Source of the DNA: Terriglobia bacterium | GTDB taxonomy: Bacteria > Acidobacteriota > Terriglobia > Bryobacterales > Bryobacteraceae | Direction of reading: 5' to 3' | Length of the DNA stretch: 64,000 nt | Assembly (NCBI GenBank): GCA_021325235.1 | Contig: JAJPHN010000025.1 | Span: 558,001-622,000 of the forward strand | In this document: in pieces, positions 37,542 to 47,443 of the stretch | Position numbering within the stretch: the stretch's first letter is position 1 | Layout: each line of letters opens with the position of its first letter | Program-made: the position numbers and the translations under genes | Notes under the pieces: generated by a model | The model's input: the letters and a program-made list of their open reading frames with translations, nothing else | What the model was told of the DNA's origin: nothing | Database searches by the model: none

Positions 37542-39623
37542 CTAGTGCGCCACCAGCACGGAGCGATCTTCCGGATTTTCGATGCTGTGGCGGTCGCCGG
37601 CTGCCTTCACATAACTGCGCAACACTTCGGCCACGCTCCAGGCCTGCGCGCAGCAGCCCCGCGGAGTAAACGGCGGCTCCGCATCGAAGATTTCGCTGAT
37701 CGAACCCGCGCAGGCGCTGCGAACCGCGTGCCGGAACCCGTTCAGAAACTTTCGCGCACTCTCGTAATCGCCCGGGTGCACGCGCAGCCACGCATCGATA
37801 AAAGGTCCGATCAGCCACGCCCACACCGTGCCCTGATGATACGCCGCATCGCGCGAGCGCAGATCGCCATCGTAGCGCGGCTTAAAGTCCGGCTCACCGG
37901 GCGCAAGCGAGCGTAACCCAACCGGAGTCAGCAATCTGTCCTTCACCGTACCCAGAACCGGTTCCCAGCGCGACTGCTCGAGTACCGGATAATCGAGCGA
38001 AATGGAAAATATCTGGTTTGGCCGGCACTGCGGATCGTCCTTGCCGTTCTCGCCATCCACCACGTCGTACAAATATCCGGTCTGCTCGTTCCAGAAGCGC
38101 TCGTTAAAGGATTCGTACGCCTTGGCCGCATGTTCGGCAATGCCGTTGGCCTCGTCGTCGCGCTGATTCTGCCGCAGCCACTTTTCGAGCAGCCGCAGCG
38201 CGTTGTACCAGAGCGCATTGATCTCGACCGCTTTACCGCGCCGCGGCGTCACCACCCAGTCGTCCACCTTCGCATCCATCCAGGTAAGCTGATATCCCGG
38301 CGCGCCCTGCGAAAGCAGGCCATCCTTCGGATCGACGTGTATATTAAACCGCGTTCCGCGCAGATGGTGCCCCACAATGTCGAGCAGCTTCGGGAGCAGC
38401 TGCTTCAGCAGATGTTTGTCATCGGTCCGATCGAAGTAACGCCCGATCGCGTGAAAGAACCAGAGGGTCGCATCCGCCGTGTGATAAAGCCCGCTGGTTT
38501 TCCCTTCCGGGAACATGTTGGGAATGAGCCCGTCGCTGATGTAATGCGCGAAGGTGCGAATGATACAGCTCGCTTCCCAGGTTCGCCCCGTGGTCAGCGT
38601 AAGCCCTTCGAGGCTGATCATGGTGTCGCGGCCCCAGTCCGTAAACCAGTGGTAGCCCGCGATAACCGAGCGAATTTCGTCGCCTGCGGCGCGCGCGCGT
38701 GCGGTATCGGCCACGCGTCCCACCGGCGTGAATAGAAACTGATCCGCCGCCCAGACCAGCTCGCGGCAGAAGTCGTCGCAGTTGTCGCTGCGCGTCTCGA
38801 GCAGCAGTCTGCGCTTGCGCTCGTGCTCGGCATCCCAGGCCGCGCGCGGCGTGAGCGCCGAAAGTATCTCCCAGCTCTCGGTCGATGCCACCAGCGTCAC
38901 ATCGTGGCTCGAATCAAGCTCCACTGTCCAGTAGCCCGGGCTCCACAGATCGCCACGCCAAATGTAGCCGCGCGAACGCTCCACCTCGTAGGTCACGTCG
39001 TGTATTTCGTGCGGATCCACCGTCACCGCACCCGCTTTGGCCAGCAGCTTCATCCGCAATGGCGGAATATCGCCCGAGCATTTCAGCTCGTAGGTGTGAT
39101 CGCGTACCGTGAATAGATACGGTTCGATCTTGTTGTTCACCGGCGCTTCATGCTCGCGCATGTTGACCGCCACGCGCAGCTGCATCTTAAGCGGCGGTCC
39201 GCTCACCAGCCGGTAATTCACATAGCTCGTGTTCTGGCGATGCGGCAGAACCACGCGCTTCTCAATTACGCTTCCTTCGACCTCGTACGTCCAGATCGGC
39301 AGACCCGCATCCAGCCGGAACGAAGTCAGATACTGCGGATTCGCCGGATACTCTCCGCCTTCGGTCTCGAGCCCGTTGAGCGGAATCACTTTGCCGTGCA
39401 CGACCGCCAGCTCGAGAATGTCGTTCAGCATCATCGTGCGCCCGAGCGGCGCCGGCAGCGCGGCGATCAGATAACCGTGAAACACTCGCGTCAACGTGCC
39501 GCCGATCGTGCCGGACGCATAGCCGCCCAGCCCGTTCGTCACCAGCCACTCCGTTTCGAACAGCTGCCGGTGTTCGTCTTTGGTCAACGGCTCGCCAGCC
39601 GTGTGATGAAAGATGTTGTTCAT
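37542..39623 (-). CDS. Glycogen debranching enzyme (amylo-alpha-1,6-glucosidase type)
   Basis: A 693-residue protein. The N-terminal GDE_N domain begins EWLVTNGLGGYASGTIGGTL and continues LTRVFHGYLIAALPAPLGR. The C-terminal (alpha/alpha)6 catalytic domain has GYHWFTDWGRDTMISLEGL, GLYHTADATLWFFHAIGRY and EINALWYNALRLLE, ending QGTVWAWLIGPFIDAWLRVH. The acidic residues in the WGRD and TADATLW motifs are the usual catalytic candidates. It cleaves alpha-1,6 branch points of glycogen. It overlaps treZ by 4 bases, giving an operon for turning glycogen chains into trehalose. Confidence 0.9.
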   Translation of the reverse strand: MNNIFHHTAGEPLTKDEHRQLFETEWLVTNGLGGYASGTIGGTLTRVFHGYLIAALPAPLGRTMMLNDILELAVVHGKVIPLNGLETEGGEYPANPQYLTSFRLDAGLPIWTYEVEGSVIEKRVVLPHRQNTSYVNYRLVSGPPLKMQLRVAVNMREHEAPVNNKIEPYLFTVRDHTYELKCSGDIPPLRMKLLAKAGAVTVDPHEIHDVTYEVERSRGYIWRGDLWSPGYWTVELDSSHDVTLVASTESWEILSALTPRAAWDAEHERKRRLLLETRSDNCDDFCRELVWAADQFLFTPVGRVADTARARAAGDEIRSVIAGYHWFTDWGRDTMISLEGLTLTTGRTWEASCIIRTFAHYISDGLIPNMFPEGKTSGLYHTADATLWFFHAIGRYFDRTDDKHLLKQLLPKLLDIVGHHLRGTRFNIHVDPKDGLLSQGAPGYQLTWMDAKVDDWVVTPRRGKAVEINALWYNALRLLEKWLRQNQRDDEANGIAEHAAKAYESFNERFWNEQTGYLYDVVDGENGKDDPQCRPNQIFSISLDYPVLEQSRWEPVLGTVKDRLLTPVGLRSLAPGEPDFKPRYDGDLRSRDAAYHQGTVWAWLIGPFIDAWLRVHPGDYESARKFLNGFRHAVRSACAGSISEIFDAEPPFTPRGCCAQAWSVAEVLRSYVKAAGDRHSIENPEDRSVLVAH

Positions 39624-41599
39624 GGAATCGGGGAATTTTTTGCGCTTGAAGCGCCTGGATCCGCCTCCGCTTCCGCCGGATACAGCAACACGGCCGATCG
39701 CCCGGGAATCTTCCAGTTCTCGTCGCTGTCGAGCGGAGCGGTCCCGCTACCACCATAGCGAATGTCTTCCGACGACCAAAGAACCGCCCACCGCTTATCC
39801 GCCGGCGGGGCAAGCAGCGGCTCCGGAGCCGGATTGAAATCGAGATCCACGCCCAGGTTCACCACCAGCAGCCGGTCGTTCGCGTAATCGCTCGTGAAAT
39901 AGCGCAGCACGAAAGCGCTGTTCGACAAGACGGCTCCATCGATCCCGTCGCGTCCCTGCTGCGCAATCACCGGATCCGTCCGCCGCAGTGCCAGCAGATC
40001 GCGATGCAGCGAATAAACATCCGCATGTTTCTCCACTTCGCTCCAGTCGAGCTTCGATCGCAGGAAGGTTTCCTCTGAACAGGGGTCCGCGAAATGCGGC
40101 AGCATCTCGTGCGTGCGCAGCGAGCGCCATTGATCGAGGAATTCGGCGCGTCCCTTGCGGATGCCCTCCGCCAACTCCGGTTTGTGATCCGCAAAATAGA
40201 GAAACGGCGCCGAGGCCGCAAACTCTTCGCCTTGAAACAGCATGGGCGTGCCCGGGCCGAGCAGCGTAACGGCCGTCAGCGCGCGAAACGCACCCGGCGC
40301 ACTCAGCTCGTGTACCCGCTGCCCCCGCGCGGAATTCGCGATCTGGTCGTGATTTTGAATGAACGTCACCATCGCGGCTCGCGGCAATCCCAGATTCGAC
40401 GTCCCGCGCCGTTTCTTCTGCCACTTGTAATATTGCCCCTGAAACAAGTAACCGTATTTGAGCGCCGAGATGAACTCCTGCGCGCTGCCGCGGTAATCGG
40501 TGTAGTACGCCTCCGAACGGCCAGTGAGCGCAACCATTGCTGAGTGATGAAAATCGTCGTTCCAGAGCGCGTCGAGCCCGTAGCCGCCTTCTACAACCGG
40601 ACGGATCAGGCGTGTTTGCTGCGGTTCGTTCTCCCCGATCAGAACAATCGAGCGGTCGCCGGCTGCTGCGCGTGCGGCCTCTCCCATTTCGGCCAGGATG
40701 TGGCGTTTGGATTCGTCGTGAATGTCCTGCGTGGCATCCAGCCGCAGCCCGTCGAGATGAAATTCGCGAATCCAGTAGGCCGCGTTCTCGCGAAAGAACT
40801 CGCGCACCGAGCCGGATTGCTCGCCGTCAAAGTTAATCGCGGCGCCCCAGTCAGTCTTATGTTTCCTGCTCAGGTAATGCGGCGAAAAATTCGGCAGGCA
40901 ATTGCCATCCGGGCCCAGATGATTGTAAACAACATCCAGGATCACGCCCAGTCCAAGCTGATGCGCTCGATCCACAAACGCGCGCATGTCATCTGGCCGC
41001 CCGTAGATCGAAGCCGGAGCGTAGGGAAGCACGCCATCGTAGCCCCATCCGAAGCGCCCGGGGAAGTCGGCCACGGGCATGATCTCGAGCAGAGTGACGC
41101 CAGTCTCCGCCAGGTACGGCAGACGATGCATGGCGGCCTTCCAGGTACCCGTCTCCGTGAAAGTGCCCAGATGCATTTCGTAGATCACCTGGCCTTCCAA
41201 TTCAACGCCGCGCCACTTCCCATCTGACCAGGCGAAAGCGCGCGGGTCGACCACTTCGGAGTATCCGTGCGGACCCTCGGGCTGAAACCGCGAGGCAGGA
41301 TCGGGATGCGTCTCTTCGTTATCCAGCTTCAGCAGATAGCGCGTGCCCGGCCGCGCATGGGACGCGAATCCTGAGAAGTACCCACCCTCTTCCGGTTCGA
41401 GCGAAAGCGCGCTTCCCTTTTCAAAAACCACCTGAACAGAGCGGTGCCCCGGCGCCCAGGTGCGAAAGCGCGTGCCACGTTCACCGAGGTAATCGGCTCC
41501 CACCGGCAAAAGCGCCGGCGCACGATCCCGTTCCATTTGCTCTGTTGACGCCGCAGACTCCAAATTCGAAGCGTCGGCCGACTCTACTACCGGTTCCAC
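39620..41599 (-). CDS. treZ: Malto-oligosyltrehalose trehalohydrolase
   Basis: A 659-residue GH13 enzyme that releases trehalose from maltooligosyl-trehalose. The N-terminal CBM48-like domain (FRTWAPGHRSVQVVFEKG) precedes the barrel. Barrel motifs are VIYEMHLGTFTETGTW, VILDVVYNHLGPDGN, the nucleophile in GLRLDATQDIHD, the acid/base in VLIGENEPQQTR and FIQNHDQIAN. The first 25 residues look unstructured and the start may lie at the Met at residue 22. Its partner TreY, which makes the substrate, is not in the window; the downstream overlapping gene is the debranching enzyme. Confidence 0.93.
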   Translation of the reverse strand: MEPVVESADASNLESAASTEQMERDRAPALLPVGADYLGERGTRFRTWAPGHRSVQVVFEKGSALSLEPEEGGYFSGFASHARPGTRYLLKLDNEETHPDPASRFQPEGPHGYSEVVDPRAFAWSDGKWRGVELEGQVIYEMHLGTFTETGTWKAAMHRLPYLAETGVTLLEIMPVADFPGRFGWGYDGVLPYAPASIYGRPDDMRAFVDRAHQLGLGVILDVVYNHLGPDGNCLPNFSPHYLSRKHKTDWGAAINFDGEQSGSVREFFRENAAYWIREFHLDGLRLDATQDIHDESKRHILAEMGEAARAAAGDRSIVLIGENEPQQTRLIRPVVEGGYGLDALWNDDFHHSAMVALTGRSEAYYTDYRGSAQEFISALKYGYLFQGQYYKWQKKRRGTSNLGLPRAAMVTFIQNHDQIANSARGQRVHELSAPGAFRALTAVTLLGPGTPMLFQGEEFAASAPFLYFADHKPELAEGIRKGRAEFLDQWRSLRTHEMLPHFADPCSEETFLRSKLDWSEVEKHADVYSLHRDLLALRRTDPVIAQQGRDGIDGAVLSNSAFVLRYFTSDYANDRLLVVNLGVDLDFNPAPEPLLAPPADKRWAVLWSSEDIRYGGSGTAPLDSDENWKIPGRSAVLLYPAEAEADPGASSAKNSPIP

Positions 41600-41909
41600 G
41601 TCTCATAGAATCTCATTCTGTGACTTGCATTTCATACCAGGTGCGAGAACTACGTGCAACCTGCCGACTTACGGACCCAATGGCAGTGAAGTTCCGAGCC
41701 ATTCGCCGGTTGAACCGGTTCACAAACCACGCCACATCGCGCCGGACCGGCTGATTCGCCTTCCACGGCCGCCCACACGTGCAGGCAGAGAGCGCTCGGT
41801 AATTTCGGCCCGTACGACATAGCTTGCTGGAAAGGTGATTGCGCACCTTTTCCTGTTGCTGGTGCGGTACGATGGCCGGAATACCAGTGAAGGGCACGTG
41901 ACTGGCTGC
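41600..41909. other. 310-base leader region before the sigma-factor gene
   Basis: No convincing gene is seen. Two local structures stand out. TGAACCGGTTCA at 41711-41722 is a 12-bp perfect palindrome. AAAGGTG (41831-41837) pairs with CACCTTT (41844-41850) around ATTGCG and runs into TTTTCC, an attenuator-like hairpin about 55 bases before the sigma-factor ATG. Confidence 0.4.
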
Positions 41910-42488
41910 ATGTCGGTAATGGTAATTTCTCCGCGATCGGCCGCGGAAGATCGCGTCGTTCCAATAAATGAGGCGGAGGCAATCCGTGCTTTCATCAGAA
42001 CACGCGACGAGAGCACATTTCGCGACCTCTTTGGTGCGGTTGCGCCGCGTCTGCTGCGATATTTTCTCCGGCGAGGCTGCTCCGATGCTCTGGCCGATGA
42101 ACTGACGCTGGAGACGATGTACACGGTTTATCGCGGAATCGGCTCGCTGCGTGTGCAGCAATCATTCCAGGCTTGGCTCTTTTCGATCGCACGCAATGCG
42201 TTGTACCGCGAATACCGGAAGAGCATGAAAGAACCTGCTACGGAGCGTCTCGATGCGGCTTCCCTGGTATCGGATCCGTCGGCTGAATTCTGGCGTGAAT
42301 CGCGCTCGGGATTTGATCATCTGATCGCGCACCTGCCTCCTGAAGAGCGGGAGGTGCTTGAGCTTCGTTATGTGGAGGAGCTTGGTTACGAGGAGATTGC
42401 GGCGGTGCTTGAGGTGCCGCTGGGAACGGTGAAATGGAGAATCCACAATTCCAAAAGGAAGCTGGCGGAACTGGTTGACGCGAAATGA
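41910..42488 (+). CDS. ECF-type RNA polymerase sigma factor
   Basis: About 192 residues from the ATG at 41910; an ATG at 41919 and a GTG at 41835 are alternatives. Region 2 is visible as TFRDLFGAVAPRLLRYFLRR, then ADELTLETMYTVYRGIGSLR and QSFQAWLFSIARNALYREYR. Region 4 reads LPPEEREVLELRYVEELGYE, EIAAVLEVPLGTVKWRIHNS. There is no region 3, as in ECF factors. It overlaps the next gene by 4 bases (ATGA), so a small soluble protein and a polytopic membrane protein are probably made from the same mRNA. These are candidate regulators of its activity. The large TonB receptor downstream is a possible target. Confidence 0.9.
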   Translation: MSVMVISPRSAAEDRVVPINEAEAIRAFIRTRDESTFRDLFGAVAPRLLRYFLRRGCSDALADELTLETMYTVYRGIGSLRVQQSFQAWLFSIARNALYREYRKSMKEPATERLDAASLVSDPSAEFWRESRSGFDHLIAHLPPEEREVLELRYVEELGYEEIAAVLEVPLGTVKWRIHNSKRKLAELVDAK

Positions 42489-42799
42489 ATATTGATATCG
42501 AACGCGAGTTGAGGGAAGAAGCCGAACGGGTGCGTGCCCGGCACGCGATCGATACCCGGCATCTCGAGCATCTGGCGGCGTGTCTGGTGGAGCGCCTCGC
42601 GGCGGATCGAAGCCGCGCGGAGGCGAGAATACTCGTTCTTCAAAGCATGTTGCAGCCGATCTGCGGCATTCATGCTACTGCCAGGCTGCTCAGAAACGCC
42701 AGCGAGAATGGCATTGACGCGGTACGCGCGCGGGTGCATTCGCTTTATGGCCGTCAGGTGGCGCGAATGGTGGAGGCGGTTCTCAAACCGGCATGCTGA
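42485..42799 (+). CDS. Small soluble helical protein in the sigma-factor operon
   Basis: A 104-residue protein overlapping the sigma-factor stop by 4 bases. It is strongly helical and charged (IERELREEAERVRARHAI, then LEHLAACLVERLAADRSRAE), with no membrane segment and only two cysteines far apart from any zinc-binding HxxxCxxC motif. It overlaps the membrane protein gene by 7 bases. The position is that of an anti-sigma factor, but it lacks the ZAS motif, so the function is inferred from context only. Confidence 0.6.
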   Translation: MNIDIERELREEAERVRARHAIDTRHLEHLAACLVERLAADRSRAEARILVLQSMLQPICGIHATARLLRNASENGIDAVRARVHSLYGRQVARMVEAVLKPAC

Positions 42800-43692
42800 T
42801 CCATCGGAAAGTGGTGCGCAGACTCTTCTGGTCGCTGTCGGCCGCAGCGGTTTTCGTGGCCCTCTGCCAGTTGTTTTTTCAGCCGCGCAATCCGTGGCTG
42901 CGCGTAAATTCCGCTCTTTTCCGTGCTCAGGCGGCTGCCGGCTACCTGGTCGGGGTTTTGTACGCGAGCCGGATGAGAAACGAATACCCGGAGGGGTCCG
43001 GGATGCGGCGCGCCTGGGGATGGATGATCGCCGGCGTTGTTTCTTTCCTGGCGTATCAGACGCTCGATACGCTCATGGTGCTTTGTCCGTTCCTGCGCAG
43101 CGTGCCGACCGAAGATGCCTGGTTGATCGGCGTTACCCTCTCCCTCGCGCTCGTGCTGCTCGGCTTATTTCAGATGTGGTGGACCTTTCGCGATGCCGGT
43201 TTTTCTCCTGAACTCTCCAGGAGTAGTTGGGCGGTCGTCGGCATCGTGGCAGCGCTTACGATTGCTCGCATGGCCCACGGCCTTGAACCGCATCACTTAG
43301 ACGCAAGTCTGCTCTTCCGCAGTATCCGAGGAACGAGCCCGCTGCTGGTCGGCGCGGGCACAGCCGTGGGATTCCTTCTTTATCGGATGACCGCCGGTTT
43401 CGGCGAGGGCAAATTCAGCCGCACGATTCGCGGACTGCTCCTGTTCTTTGCCGTTCATCTGTTGTTATTTCAGCTCGATTGGTACCCGTCTCTCTGGAAT
43501 GTCCCTGTGATCGATGCCGCTACCGACGTTCTTTACTACGTGCTCCCCTGGGTGCTGGCCTGCGCTCTGACCGAATGCTGGGAAGTTGGTATCGAAGCCA
43601 AACTGGCCGTGGAGCATTATCAGATCGGCGAATATCGCCACCAGTGGGGGCCGGCCGCGACGAGCTGTAGCCCGGAAAATTACCTTTCCTGA
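42793..43692 (+). CDS. Polytopic membrane protein in the sigma-factor operon
   Basis: A 299-residue integral membrane protein with about eight hydrophobic segments, for example LFWSLSAAAVFVALCQLFF, MIAGVVSFLAYQTLDTLMVL and LLLFFAVHLLLFQLDW. Loops are short and the tail (about 30 residues) is cytoplasmic or periplasmic. I recognise no family; it is not an obvious histidine-kinase sensor or transporter. Its start overlaps the small helical gene by 7 bases. Its end overlaps the imperfect tandem repeat at 43671. It may anchor or control the sigma factor. Confidence 0.65.
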   Translation: MLIHRKVVRRLFWSLSAAAVFVALCQLFFQPRNPWLRVNSALFRAQAAAGYLVGVLYASRMRNEYPEGSGMRRAWGWMIAGVVSFLAYQTLDTLMVLCPFLRSVPTEDAWLIGVTLSLALVLLGLFQMWWTFRDAGFSPELSRSSWAVVGIVAALTIARMAHGLEPHHLDASLLFRSIRGTSPLLVGAGTAVGFLLYRMTAGFGEGKFSRTIRGLLLFFAVHLLLFQLDWYPSLWNVPVIDAATDVLYYVLPWVLACALTECWEVGIEAKLAVEHYQIGEYRHQWGPAATSCSPENYLS

Positions 43693-43724
43693 TTCAAACC
43701 CGGAAATTATTTTCCTGATTCAAA
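43671..43724. repeat. Imperfect tandem duplication of a 26-28 base unit
   Basis: Copy 1 (43671-43698) and copy 2 (43699-43724) both start CCCGGAAA and end TTTCCTGATTCAAA or TTTTCCTGATTCAAA. They differ by a few internal changes and two bases in length. The first copy contains the membrane protein's stop codon and the second lies in the 36-base stretch before the TonB receptor. Within each unit GGAAA and TTTCC could pair. Confidence 0.8.
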
Positions 43725-43759
43725 CAAAGTAGTCAGCATTCGTACTCTTAACGAGTAAG

Positions 43760-46700
43760 ATGCTTGGTGGAAGAGTTTGCACGCTTGCGTTTTCGCTGGT
43801 GGCAGTGGCAATTGGGACCGCGTTCGGGCAGCAGGGTTCGCTCGGCTCTCTTACGGGAACGGTAACCGATCCATCCGGGGCCGCTGTTCCGGGAGTGGTG
43901 GTTACGGCGACGAATATCGCCACGAATGTCGAATCCAAGGCCACGACCACCAGCAAAGGCGTGTATCGAATTGGTGGGCTCATTCCCGGTACATACACGC
44001 TCAGCACGCTCAAGACGGGTTTCGACAGTGCGCAGATTCCAGCCTTTGAAGTTCACGTCGCCGAGCTTGTAACCGTTAATATCCCGCTGCAGGTAGGGCG
44101 CAGCTCGCAAGCGGTAACGGTCAATGCGGAAGCACCATTGGTCGATGCCAGCACGTCGCAGTTGAACCATTACGTCACCCCGAAGGAACTCGAGGACTGG
44201 CCGGTTCCTGTCACCGGAGATGGCGAGCGTCAGTTGCAGGATTTCGTCTTCAAGAGTCTGCCTGGAACGACGGGCGAGACTTTTATCGGCTCCATCAATG
44301 GCGGCCAGAATTTCGCCAACGAAGTAGTCATCGACGGTATCTCACTGGGTACCTTCGACACCGCCGAACTTGGACCCAGCATGGATGCGGTGGGCGAGTT
44401 CAATCTGCAGACCGGCGCAATGAGCGCGCAGTACGGCGGCGGCTCAACCGCGGTCACGAATTTCAGCATCAAGTCGGGCACCAACAAACTGCAGGGGACG
44501 GTGTACACCTATATTCAGAACGAAGCGCTCGACGCGAACAGCTTTGACAATAATGCCTTCGGTACGCCGCGCCCACGGCAGCGCCTCGAGACATATGGCG
44601 GAGCGATCGGCGGACCGGTTTTCATTCCGAAGATCTACGATGGCCGGAATAAGACCTTCTTCTTTGTTTCCGACGAGCAGACCCAAAAGAATAACTTCAT
44701 CTATTCCGGCTTTACAACACTGCCCACGACGGACATGATGAATGGCAACTTTTCAAAGTGGCTGAATCCGCTCTATACGCAGGATCCACGTTCGGGTTCG
44801 CCAGCCTTCACCCCTGACGGCACTCCGGTTGTAGATAATCTCGGGCGGCCGGTGATCTTCGGTCAGATTTACAATCCGGCCACAGCGCGCACCGTAACGG
44901 CCGGCGCGGTCGATCCGGTTACCGGGCTTACGGCGATCAAAACCGGTTTGGTGCGCGATCCGTTTCCGAATAACATCATCCCCACAAGCATGTTTGATCC
45001 CGTAGCTGTGAATTACCTGAAGCTGCCATATACGGGGGCCAAATACATCAACGGCGCCGTGGTGAACAACGTTGCGAAATACGCCAATAATCAGCCGGTA
45101 TTCAACCAGAACCTCTTCTCGATGAAGATCGACGAAGTGATCAACTCGAACCACCGCGTATCGGCCTATTACACCCAGGTCGGGCGCGATCGCAGCAACA
45201 GCGGTAATGCGACCTGGTCCGTTCCCGGCGCCAATCCGCTCGACACGTGGGATAACCAGCACAATCCGGGACACATCGCGCGCATCAGCGAGGACTGGAC
45301 CATTTCAGCACACATGCTGAACCACCTCGGATACGGTTACAACCGGTTCACGAATGAGTACACGACGCCGTTCTACACCAAAGACTGGGCTTCGACACTC
45401 GGCATCCAGAACACCGAAAGCTTCGGCTTCCCCACCGTTTCGTTCAGCGGGCCGAGTAGCCTGGGCGGCGGAATCGATGGCATCGGTAATGGCTCAAATG
45501 GAGCCGGCGACGTGGCGCAGAGCAGCATCTTCCTCGAGCAGTTCACGCTCATTCACGGCGGCCACACGATGCAGATGGGAACAGAGTTTCGTTTTTACAA
45601 CGAAAACGATGTGAACGTCTCGGGCGTGGGCAGTTTTGCATTCAATAACCGGCAAACCGACGACGGATTTGGCTCGCTGGATTACGCGGGGAATGCCTAC
45701 GCGAGTTTCCTGTTAGGACAGGTCAACACGAGCGGACGTGCCATCGCCTATACCAACGCCGGATTCCGCCGCCACATGACGGGCACCTTCTTCCAGGACG
45801 ACTGGAAGGTCACGCCGCATCTCACGCTCAACCTCGGCCTGCGCTGGGAAGTGATGGGCGGGATCGATGAAGTGGCCGGACGCATGACGCGTTTCGATCC
45901 GGCTAAACCGAACCCCGGAGCGGATGGCCGGCTGGGGGCGCTCGATTTTGCGAGCCAGGACCACATTCAAAGCTGGGAACATACCGATTGGCACCTGTTC
46001 TCACCGCGCTTCGGATTTGCCTATGCGCGGACGCAGCGTTTTGTCTTCCGCGGCGGTTATGGAATCAATACTCAGGCTCCGGAAGGCGGTCCGCAACTTC
46101 AGTTCCAGGGCTCGCCGTCTATCCAGGGCTACAACGGCCAGATTCAGATCAACCACGCCACGCACCCGACGCAATATCCCGACCTGCCTACGTTTATTCT
46201 CAGCAACCCGTATCCCTCATTCAGCGGAACACTACCCAACTACGATCCTTCCCAGGCAAACAACCAGACTCCGCCGCAGTACATCGGAGTGAACGGCGCG
46301 CGAGTTTCGTACACCCAAAACTACACGCTCGGCTTTCAATATCAGGTCAGTCCTTCAACAATTGCCGATGTGAACTGGGTTGGCAACTACACGACCCGCC
46401 TCAATACGGGCGGCAGCAATGGCGGCGATCTCGGCAGCATGAATTATCTGCCGGTGAGCGACATCGCCAAGTATGGCGATGCGCTGCTCGATCCGCTCGC
46501 TTCTCACCCCAATCTGCCGCTGCCGTATGCGGGATTCGACAGCACGCAGCTCGTGCAGCAGGCGCTGGTACCGTATCCGCAATATCCGGGGGGCAGCGTC
46601 TTTGAATACGACAACCACACTGGCTGGTCGCATTACGAATCGCTGCAGGTACAGGTCACGCGCCGCGTATCGAGCGGCTTCAGTATCCTCGCTGCGTATA

Positions 46701-47443
46701 CCTGGTCGAAAAATCTGACCGACACCAACGGCGGAACGCAGGACTTTCAGAACCGGCAACTCGAGTATGCCGTCGCGAGCGGGCTGCACTATCCGCACGT
46801 GGCGAAATTTACGATGATCTATAACTTGCCGATAGGTCCCAACGGGCTCATTCCTGTCACCGGCTGGAAAAATACGCTTTTCGGCGGATGGCTGCTGAGC
46901 GGCAATACGATCTATCAATCGGGCGATGTTCTTTCGATCAGCGATAGCTCAGCCGTGAACGGAATCTTCACGACAACGCGGCCCGACTATGTTTCCGGCC
47001 AGCCCGTGGCGCTTGGAAGCCCCGGCGGTTTCGATATCGCGAATCCGAACGGGCCAAGCGGGTCACAATACCTGAATCCGGCCGCTTTCGCGCGCGTGCC
47101 CACCACTTGCAGCCTGGTAGCTCCGGGGCAGCCGTGCAACGGCATTGCTCTTCGTCCGGGCACTGCGCCGAGCACGCTGCCGAATATCCGCGGGCCGTGG
47201 CTTGCAAACGAGAGTCTCAGTTTGCAGAAGAATTTTCGGCTCGGCGAAAAGCGTGATATCCAGTTTCGGGCCGAGATGTTCAACCTGCTGAACCGCGCCG
47301 GCAAGGCGGATCCGGTCACCGATATCAACGATCCGAACTTCGGCAAGATTCTCGGGCCGGGCAGTGATTCGCAAAACATCGATTCGGATTCGTATTTCTA
47401 TCAGCCCCGCGTGATACAACTCTCGCTGCGAGTTCATTTCTAA
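43760..47443 (+). CDS. Oar-like TonB-dependent receptor with carboxypeptidase-regulatory-like domain
   Basis: A 1227-residue outer-membrane protein. After a signal peptide (LAFSLVAVAIGTAFGQ) comes a carboxypeptidase-regulatory-like beta-sandwich (SLTGTVTDPSGAAVPGVVVT, IGGLIPGTYTLSTLKTGF), residues about 28-110. A plug region (GQNFANEVVIDGISLGTFDT, GGGSTAVTNFSIKSGTNKLQ) follows, then a barrel with many repeated strand motifs. The last residue is Phe (LRVHF), the usual BAM signal. Such receptors are very numerous in Solibacter-like genomes and are thought to import polymers or peptides. It follows the ECF sigma operon directly, so sigma-dependent control is possible. The substrate is unknown. 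Confidence 0.92.
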   Translation: MLGGRVCTLAFSLVAVAIGTAFGQQGSLGSLTGTVTDPSGAAVPGVVVTATNIATNVESKATTTSKGVYRIGGLIPGTYTLSTLKTGFDSAQIPAFEVHVAELVTVNIPLQVGRSSQAVTVNAEAPLVDASTSQLNHYVTPKELEDWPVPVTGDGERQLQDFVFKSLPGTTGETFIGSINGGQNFANEVVIDGISLGTFDTAELGPSMDAVGEFNLQTGAMSAQYGGGSTAVTNFSIKSGTNKLQGTVYTYIQNEALDANSFDNNAFGTPRPRQRLETYGGAIGGPVFIPKIYDGRNKTFFFVSDEQTQKNNFIYSGFTTLPTTDMMNGNFSKWLNPLYTQDPRSGSPAFTPDGTPVVDNLGRPVIFGQIYNPATARTVTAGAVDPVTGLTAIKTGLVRDPFPNNIIPTSMFDPVAVNYLKLPYTGAKYINGAVVNNVAKYANNQPVFNQNLFSMKIDEVINSNHRVSAYYTQVGRDRSNSGNATWSVPGANPLDTWDNQHNPGHIARISEDWTISAHMLNHLGYGYNRFTNEYTTPFYTKDWASTLGIQNTESFGFPTVSFSGPSSLGGGIDGIGNGSNGAGDVAQSSIFLEQFTLIHGGHTMQMGTEFRFYNENDVNVSGVGSFAFNNRQTDDGFGSLDYAGNAYASFLLGQVNTSGRAIAYTNAGFRRHMTGTFFQDDWKVTPHLTLNLGLRWEVMGGIDEVAGRMTRFDPAKPNPGADGRLGALDFASQDHIQSWEHTDWHLFSPRFGFAYARTQRFVFRGGYGINTQAPEGGPQLQFQGSPSIQGYNGQIQINHATHPTQYPDLPTFILSNPYPSFSGTLPNYDPSQANNQTPPQYIGVNGARVSYTQNYTLGFQYQVSPSTIADVNWVGNYTTRLNTGGSNGGDLGSMNYLPVSDIAKYGDALLDPLASHPNLPLPYAGFDSTQLVQQALVPYPQYPGGSVFEYDNHTGWSHYESLQVQVTRRVSSGFSILAAYTWSKNLTDTNGGTQDFQNRQLEYAVASGLHYPHVAKFTMIYNLPIGPNGLIPVTGWKNTLFGGWLLSGNTIYQSGDVLSISDSSAVNGIFTTTRPDYVSGQPVALGSPGGFDIANPNGPSGSQYLNPAAFARVPTTCSLVAPGQPCNGIALRPGTAPSTLPNIRGPWLANESLSLQKNFRLGEKRDIQFRAEMFNLLNRAGKADPVTDINDPNFGKILGPGSDSQNIDSDSYFYQPRVIQLSLRVHF

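What the first reader, a model, noticed from the sequence alone, without database searches (positions are those of the whole stretch)
41910..43692. Overlapping ECF sigma / small helical protein / polytopic membrane protein module next to a giant TonB receptor
The three genes overlap by 4 and 7 bases, so they are one translational unit. Neither the 104-residue protein nor the roughly 8-helix membrane protein shows a ZAS anti-sigma motif or a known FecR-like arrangement, yet position suggests they control the sigma factor. This could be an undescribed membrane-linked sigma-control system. The leader carries a 12-bp palindrome and a terminator-like hairpin.
Basis: inference. Interest (0 to 1): 0.6.

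Follow-up and report, generated by a model that had tools for sequence, protein, structure and literature searches.

The report
Bacterial sigma switch with membrane receptor
Soil Acidobacteria carry a recurring gene set in which a gene-switching sigma factor is followed by a small adaptor protein and a seven- or eight-helix membrane protein of an unnamed family; the copy here lacks the zinc finger that most relatives have in the middle protein and sits in front of an outer-membrane receptor gene.

Summary
The three overlapping genes are real (overlaps 4 and 7 bases) and form a conserved module: ECF sigma, middle protein, membrane protein. The membrane protein (8 predicted helices) belongs to a family without a Pfam model. 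I examined 23 window-type modules in 19 of 237 genomes of the window's family, and 32 loci of a sister branch. [quoted passage not shown] The window's 104-residue protein keeps only the end of the anti-sigma domain and that C-terminal domain. A profile of this domain found it nowhere except beside the membrane protein (22 of 22 matches); in one contig both are one ORF, and a similar domain ends a NarL-type response regulator before a sister membrane protein. Best reading, at about even odds: a membrane receptor controls transcription regulators through a cytoplasmic adaptor domain; the likely target here is the adjacent Oar-like receptor gene. A new variant of sigma/anti-sigma signalling, resting on genome anatomy; no binding, regulation or signal has been shown.

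The parts
41910..42488 (+). ECF sigma factor (192 aa from ATG 41910; ATG 41919 or in-frame GTG 41835 are alternative starts). Carries GTVKW in region 4; the W is invariant in the 14 module sigmas aligned
42485..42799 (+). 104-aa all-helical middle protein: truncated class I anti-sigma factor / adaptor (inferred from relatives)
42485..42604 (+). N-terminal part of the middle protein, aligned just after the zinc-finger segment of relatives (end of helix 3 plus helix 4 of the anti-sigma domain, inferred)
   Evidence: helix assignment inferred and PMC7406223
42599..42796 (+). C-terminal domain with two glycine-centred hairpins; matched only beside the membrane protein family
42793..43692 (+). polytopic membrane protein, 8 predicted helices, N-in/C-in inferred from loop charges; helices 2-8 arranged like a 7TM receptor in the model (weak)
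43760..47443 (+). Oar-like outer-membrane receptor (CarboxypepD_reg + OMP_b-brl_4), possible target gene, starting 68 bases past the membrane gene's end
41829..41853 (.). hairpin upstream of the sigma gene (9-base arms, one extra T)
43671..43725 (.). tandem duplication (unit 26-28 bases, 2 copies) across the membrane gene's stop codon

Best explanation
A membrane receptor-adaptor-sigma module. The membrane protein senses a signal in the membrane or periplasm. The middle protein's C-terminal two-glycine domain docks on its cytoplasmic face, and its N-terminal part (in most relatives a zinc-finger class I anti-sigma domain, here only the end of that domain) holds the ECF sigma factor. The signal changes the receptor-adaptor contact and frees the sigma factor, which transcribes its own operon and the adjacent Oar-like receptor. 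Shown by sequence: gene order, conserved neighbourhood, anti-sigma ancestry of the middle protein family, absence of the zinc finger here, pairing of the C-terminal domain with the membrane protein, one ORF in which both are fused. Inferred: docking, sigma binding by the remnant, direction of the signal, target gene. Unknown: the signal.
For: ECF sigma upstream in 14 of 14 first loci and 22 of 23 window-type modules (one search scored 21; L048; L056 is cut by its contig start). C-terminal domain: 22 matches in 18 of 237 genomes, 22 of 22 at places where one search found the membrane protein (19 of the 22 built the profile, and 23 candidates per genome at most were scored, so the weight lies in there being no match elsewhere). 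Fusion in G221, one contig. Class I anti-sigma ancestry. Sister branch: 27 of 32 loci with a sigma, 30 of 32 with a middle protein (permissive thresholds), 24 of 32 with Hx3Cx2C; profile link E 8.7e-10, score 71.8 against at most 14.9 in 10 column shuffles. NarL-type regulator ending in a similar domain before the sister membrane protein, two genomes of one genus. Oar-like receptor next downstream on the same strand in 13 of 23 window-type modules (one search counts 9 by its distance rule; L053, L054, L071 and L024, where the receptor ORF opens inside the membrane gene, added by hand; L047 and L064 have no downstream sequence).
Against: No interaction, expression or signal data. The window's middle protein lacks the zinc finger and most of the sigma-binding bundle, so it may no longer bind sigma. 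The link between the C-terminal domains of the two branches is weak by profile (probability 2.6 with three sequences; probability 16, E 0.0016 with 22, better than 60 of 60 shuffles), and the window-type profile did not find the sister domains. The anti-sigma profile also hits the unrelated splicing protein Prp31 at E 0.0025, better than DdvA at 0.0053. Sixteen other genomes of the window's genus have no match to the window-type profile. No shared promoter motif was found (11 of 17 leaders used, best count 6, also reached in 6 of 100 shuffles). Oar-like receptors are abundant, so some adjacency is chance; 9 of the 13 downstream cases are in one genus.
Confidence: 0.5

Rival explanations
1. The membrane protein itself is the anti-sigma factor (as proposed for NrsF) and the 104-aa protein is an assembly or stability factor; this would explain why the zinc finger can be lost.
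For: Zinc motif absent in 10 of 23 window-type modules (window, seven related loci of genus g5, the fused copy L060 of the same genus, and L064; L056, cut by its contig start, is not counted). A polytopic negative regulator of an ECF sigma exists: NrsF, six predicted helices (PMC3511200, passages).
Against: 36 of 55 loci have a zinc-motif middle protein as well as the membrane protein. No DUF1109 hit in 18 members at E <= 1 or 24 at E <= 0.1. Where a response regulator stands in place of the sigma/anti-sigma pair, the membrane protein persists.
Confidence: 0.2
2. Cell-surface signalling: the receptor senses its own substrate and signals to the membrane protein, a FecR-like circuit with other parts.
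For: Receptor next downstream in 13 of 23 window-type modules (see above); divergent receptor beside L047, L060 and L064.
Against: No STN-type signalling domain in the receptor and no FecR hit. No receptor in the held stretch of L045, L056, L061 or L063. The genes next downstream are SpoIIE, HATPase and STAS in G041 and a PAS histidine kinase in G153.
Confidence: 0.12
3. The window copy is decaying: the anti-sigma protein is broken and the sigma factor is now unregulated or regulated only by transcription.
For: Window proteins are divergent (membrane protein 20-24%, middle protein 15-24% identity to 11 relatives each); no match in 16 congeners; sigmas of the same clade without partners exist.
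Against: All three frames are open with tight overlaps; both invariant glycines of the C-terminal domain are kept; the same truncation is kept across seven loci of genus g5.
Confidence: 0.12
4. The membrane protein is a transporter or enzyme co-transcribed with the sigma factor, not a regulator.
For: No functional annotation; weak hits to transporters in single members, the best ArgO at E 1.8e-4 in 1 of 18.
Against: A sigma or response regulator lies upstream in 51 of 55 loci (49 with sigma: one search's 48 plus L048; 2 with response regulator); fused to the adaptor domain once.
Confidence: 0.06

Closest known systems
Class I (zinc-associated) anti-sigma factors: ChrR, RskA, RsiW
   Same: The family profile of the middle protein matches these over the zinc-finger region, ChrR over 75 residues; encoded directly after an ECF sigma
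   Different: The window protein lacks the Hx3Cx2C segment; an extra C-terminal two-glycine domain; a polytopic membrane partner gene
SigX-CfrX-CmpX of Pseudomonas aeruginosa (ECF102), as summarised in the review PMC8999054 (passages seen)
   Same: A small soluble putative anti-sigma protein proposed to act with a membrane protein
   Different: CmpX is described as an ion channel and OprF as a porin; the window membrane protein has no channel hit in Pfam, but CmpX and CfrX were not compared directly
NrsF (DUF1109) of Caulobacter, PMC3511200 (passages seen)
   Same: Polytopic membrane protein encoded with an ECF sigma and controlling it
   Different: Six predicted helices and second gene of the operon, with no middle protein described in the passages; no DUF1109 match here
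FecI/FecR-type cell-surface signalling (features recalled; starts of abstracts of PMC9249621 and PMC11637429 seen in listings)
   Same: ECF sigma, regulator and outer-membrane receptor side by side
   Different: No FecR hit; receptor without STN domain; polytopic protein in place of a single-helix regulator
Microbial rhodopsins and other 7TM receptors
   Same: Predicted arrangement of helices 2-8
   Different: No conserved lysine in the last helix (2 of 18); no sequence match; score within the range that unrelated helical bundles reach

Membership tests
Class I (ZAS) anti-sigma factor | Hx3Cx2C zinc motif / zf-HC2 match in the middle protein | tested here: not met
   Absent from the window protein. 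Motif present in 12 of 23 window-type and 24 of 32 sister-type loci. Class I members without zinc are known (PMC7406223, passages), so this alone does not exclude it
Class I (ZAS) anti-sigma factor | Homology to solved class I anti-sigma domains | tested here: inconclusive
   Family profile hits RsiW, RskA, ChrR at E 2.7e-4 to 4.3e-4, but Prp31 also at 0.0025, and through the part the window protein lacks; the window model alone has no significant fold match
Class I (ZAS) anti-sigma factor | Binds and inhibits the cognate ECF sigma | not testable with these tools
   Needs a binding assay
FecR-type cell-surface signalling | FecR-like single-helix regulator | tested here: not met
   No FecR family hit; partner has 8 predicted helices
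FecR-type cell-surface signalling | Receptor with N-terminal STN signalling domain | tested here: not met
   Pfam finds CarboxypepD_reg at the N-terminus and no STN
NrsF / DUF1109 | DUF1109 sequence family | tested here: not met
   No match in the window protein or in 18 and 24 members
Microbial rhodopsin | Retinal-binding lysine in the last helix | tested here: not met
   Lysine anywhere in the aligned segment in 2 of 18 members, not the window
7TM receptor fold | Seven-helix receptor arrangement | tested here: inconclusive
   Best VIA Z 12.1, rmsd 4.8 over 207 residues; best Foldseek E 0.011, none <= 0.001; the tool warns that helical bundles under about 13 may show only a common arrangement
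SigX-CfrX-CmpX | Mechanosensitive-channel membrane partner | tested here: inconclusive
   No channel family hit for the membrane protein; CmpX itself was not compared

The most novel reading that the evidence does not exclude
A previously unnamed bacterial 7TM-type receptor family signals through a dedicated cytoplasmic two-glycine adaptor domain that is plugged onto different transcription regulators (ECF anti-sigma factors with different sigmas, a NarL-type response regulator, a stand-alone adaptor), and the window shows a reduced form in which the adaptor alone, without a zinc finger, links receptor and sigma factor.
Probability: 0.35. Interest if true: 0.78.

Novelty: new variant of a known kind. 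Interest (0 to 1): 0.56.

Why it matters
Class I anti-sigma factors are usually described as carrying at least one membrane helix themselves (about 65%) or as soluble (about 35%) (PMC7406223, passages). A split design, in which a polytopic membrane protein works through a separate adaptor domain that also appears on a response regulator, would be a modular route for membrane signals into transcription in Acidobacteria, which are abundant in many soils and hard to culture. It also offers a natural series (zinc finger kept, lost, adaptor fused to the membrane protein) for testing which part of a class I anti-sigma factor is needed.

Tried and rejected
Chorismate-mutase-like hit for the 104-aa protein (NCBIfam E 0.0014, 18.7 bits against a cut-off of 73.35): set aside as helical resemblance. 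PrsK-like hit for the membrane protein (E 0.53): one member of 18, set aside. Phylum hits L065 and L066: by my reading of the ORFs, L065 is a cation-efflux-like transporter and L066 an unrelated 299-aa ORF without a polytopic look; no family search was run on them. Rhodopsin: no conserved lysine. Shared ECF promoter motif: none. Fold of the 104-aa protein: no Foldseek match at E <= 0.001 and no VIA Z of 5 or more; this does not show a new fold. Insertion site: in three congeners other genes lie upstream of the neighbouring gene (39620-41599, trehalose-type by recall), so the locus is variable, but no empty site was defined. GC content of the module (0.57-0.61 in 1-kb windows) is close to its flanks. 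Paper searches; no listed paper appeared to describe this system, but the 2021 ECF classification is not held, so it may stand there as a group; the review PMC8999054 names ECF270, a ZAS-regulated group with an acidobacterial example, which I could not compare.

Rows dropped: one search used 23 window-type loci from 19 genomes; left out of the 26 genomes were G158 (contig end), G083 and G028 (broken or partial), G140, G152, G159 and G147 (sister type), and a second fragment in G167. Its 32 sister loci are the 30 returned and 2 of the 6 matches; further matches had no locus. The sigma tree used 39 of 94 distinct sequences.

Full report
What is in the window. The ECF sigma gene (ATG 41910, stop 42488), a 104-aa ORF (42485-42799) and a 299-aa ORF (42793-43692) overlap by 4 and 7 bases; a 1227-aa receptor (43760-47443) follows 68 bases on. 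Pfam finds sigma regions 2 and 4 in the first, nothing in the second, only E 0.26 and worse in the third, and CarboxypepD_reg plus OMP_b-brl_4 in the receptor. NCBIfam adds only weak hits for the two partners.

The neighbourhood is conserved. The membrane protein hits 14 of 200 genomes of its family at E <= 0.001, its own included; all 14 loci have an ECF sigma upstream (order read). With a profile, 26 of 237 family genomes match, none of the other 16 genomes of the window's genus; 19 of the 26 gave the 23 window-type modules counted below. The window's genome has one copy. In a phylum sample of 396 genomes I accept only the window's own match (two others set aside after reading their ORFs). 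A scan of named genomes with the sigma alignment kept 80 loci, 7 of which hold the membrane protein; their records are labelled Bryobacteraceae, Candidatus Sulfopaludibacter, Acidobacteriia, Acidobacteria or Acidobacteriaceae. Sigmas of the same clade also occur without both partners (8 loci).

The middle protein is a former anti-sigma factor. In 12 of 23 window-type modules it carries Hx3Cx2C. Pfam calls zf-HC2 above its cut-off in 10 of 11 zinc-motif-bearing middle proteins tested (L040 at 19.0 bits falls below 22.2). A profile of the family matches the class I anti-sigma domains of RsiW, RskA and ChrR at E 2.7e-4 to 4.3e-4; Prp31, unrelated, follows at 0.0025 and the antisigma factor DdvA at 0.0053. 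The window protein begins where relatives have finished the zinc segment. By the published geometry (PMC7406223; one section and passages seen) helix 1 contacts sigma region 4 and helix 4 contacts region 2, so the remnant may keep the region 2 contact only: this is inference. The zinc motif is also missing in seven related loci of genus g5, in the fused copy L060 of the same genus, and in L064. In the sigma tree the six g5 rows form a supported clade without the window, and L064 groups with the zinc-bearing L061 (L061 is only 39% filled), so several independent losses are likely, although deep forks are open.

The C-terminal domain. Two glycines are invariant in 19 members. Searching 237 family genomes with this domain gave 22 matches in 18 genomes, all at places where the membrane protein was found (19 of the 22 built the profile), and 1 of 396 phylum genomes, the window's own. 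At most 23 and 13 candidates a genome were scored. In G221 the domain and the membrane protein form one ORF behind the sigma gene; this is one contig of one draft genome.

A wider system. Weak matches led to a sister branch of membrane proteins (profile comparison E 8.7e-10; 10 column shuffles reach 14.9 against 71.8). It matches 35 of 237 family genomes, the window's own protein among them at E 1.1e-4. Of 32 sister loci examined (30, 2), 27 have an ECF sigma upstream, 30 a middle protein under permissive thresholds and 24 Hx3Cx2C. Without a sigma in the held stretch are L199, L200, L205, L207 and L226; without a detected middle protein L226 and L228. In L199 and L200 (G140, G152, one genus) the preceding gene is a response regulator with receiver and GerE domains whose C-terminus resembles the adaptor domain. 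In G454, another family of the phylum, a 98-aa protein matching both adaptor profiles precedes the membrane protein and no sigma was detected. The link between the two adaptor profiles is weak: probability 2.6 with three sequences, probability 16 and E 0.0016 with 22 sequences, where the score of 21.4 exceeds all 60 shuffles (best 12.7). A phylum sample of 275 with the joint profile gave 6 matches, the window's own included; two in another family of the class have the sigma and middle genes, and two weak ones (L233, L234) show no module.

Structure. Models: middle protein pLDDT 75.5, pTM 0.62 from 7 sequences, six helices, no significant fold match. Membrane protein pLDDT 80.8, pTM 0.76 from 8 sequences. 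Loops predicted cytoplasmic are richer in K/R (0.17-0.21 per residue, C-terminal tail 0.12, N-terminus not measured) than outer loops (0.03-0.11) in 18 sequences. Fold searches list 7TM proteins first: microbial rhodopsins with Foldseek E from 0.011 and GPCRs with VIA Z up to 12.1. The tool warns that helical bundles under about 13 may show only a common arrangement, so this is a hint. A retinal lysine is not conserved. No Pfam model fits the family and no solved structure by sequence.

Receptor link. An Oar-like receptor lies next downstream on the same strand in 13 of 23 window-type modules (9 by the rule, 4 added by hand from its distances; two modules have no downstream sequence). Nine of the 13 are in genus g5, so there are fewer independent cases. 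Three more modules have a divergent receptor. All 14 genomes searched gave 35 or 36 receptor matches, the scoring limit being 35, from 62 to 331 candidates, so the link is plausible, not proven. Two modules lead into other signalling genes: SpoIIE, HATPase and STAS genes in G041 and a PAS histidine kinase in G153.

Regulatory DNA. The upstream hairpin and the palindrome are described under the observation check. A 26-28 base tandem duplication lies across the membrane gene's stop. No common promoter pair was found upstream of 11 module sigmas and six g5 leaders align poorly.

Verdict. It is a new variant of sigma/anti-sigma control, not a new kind of control, because most relatives carry a standard zinc-finger anti-sigma motif. 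The receptor-adaptor mechanism is the best reading at about even odds; it rests on genome anatomy alone.

Noticed in passing
L199 1061-2002 and L200 2565-3509: NarL-type response regulator with an added C-terminal two-glycine domain directly before a sister-type membrane protein; two genomes of one genus
   Followed up: partly
L232 1934-2230: 98-aa protein matching both adaptor profiles next to a sister-type membrane protein, with no sigma gene detected in the held stretch
   Followed up: partly
L049 5625-8482: A module followed directly by SpoIIE phosphatase, HATPase and STAS genes, a partner-switch set
   Followed up: partly
L069 3473-7456: A sigma factor of the same clade directly before an Oar-like receptor, with neither middle nor membrane gene
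   Followed up: no
L222 47-1153: One ORF of 368 aa that matches both the sigma profile and the anti-sigma/adaptor profiles, before a sister-type membrane gene; the tool reports a stop inside that match, so the contig may be faulty
   Followed up: no
window 43671-43725: Tandem 26-28 base duplication across the membrane gene's stop codon; folds better than most shuffles (6 of 200 as good)
   Followed up: partly
window 41910-42488: GT[VIA][KQ]W in sigma region 4: the W is invariant in 14 module sigmas; a pattern with it also retrieved many alphaproteobacterial sigmas
   Followed up: no
L218 2373-2756 and L230 1138-1500: Sister-type middle proteins that also lack the zinc motif, so the loss recurs outside the window-type branch
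   Followed up: no
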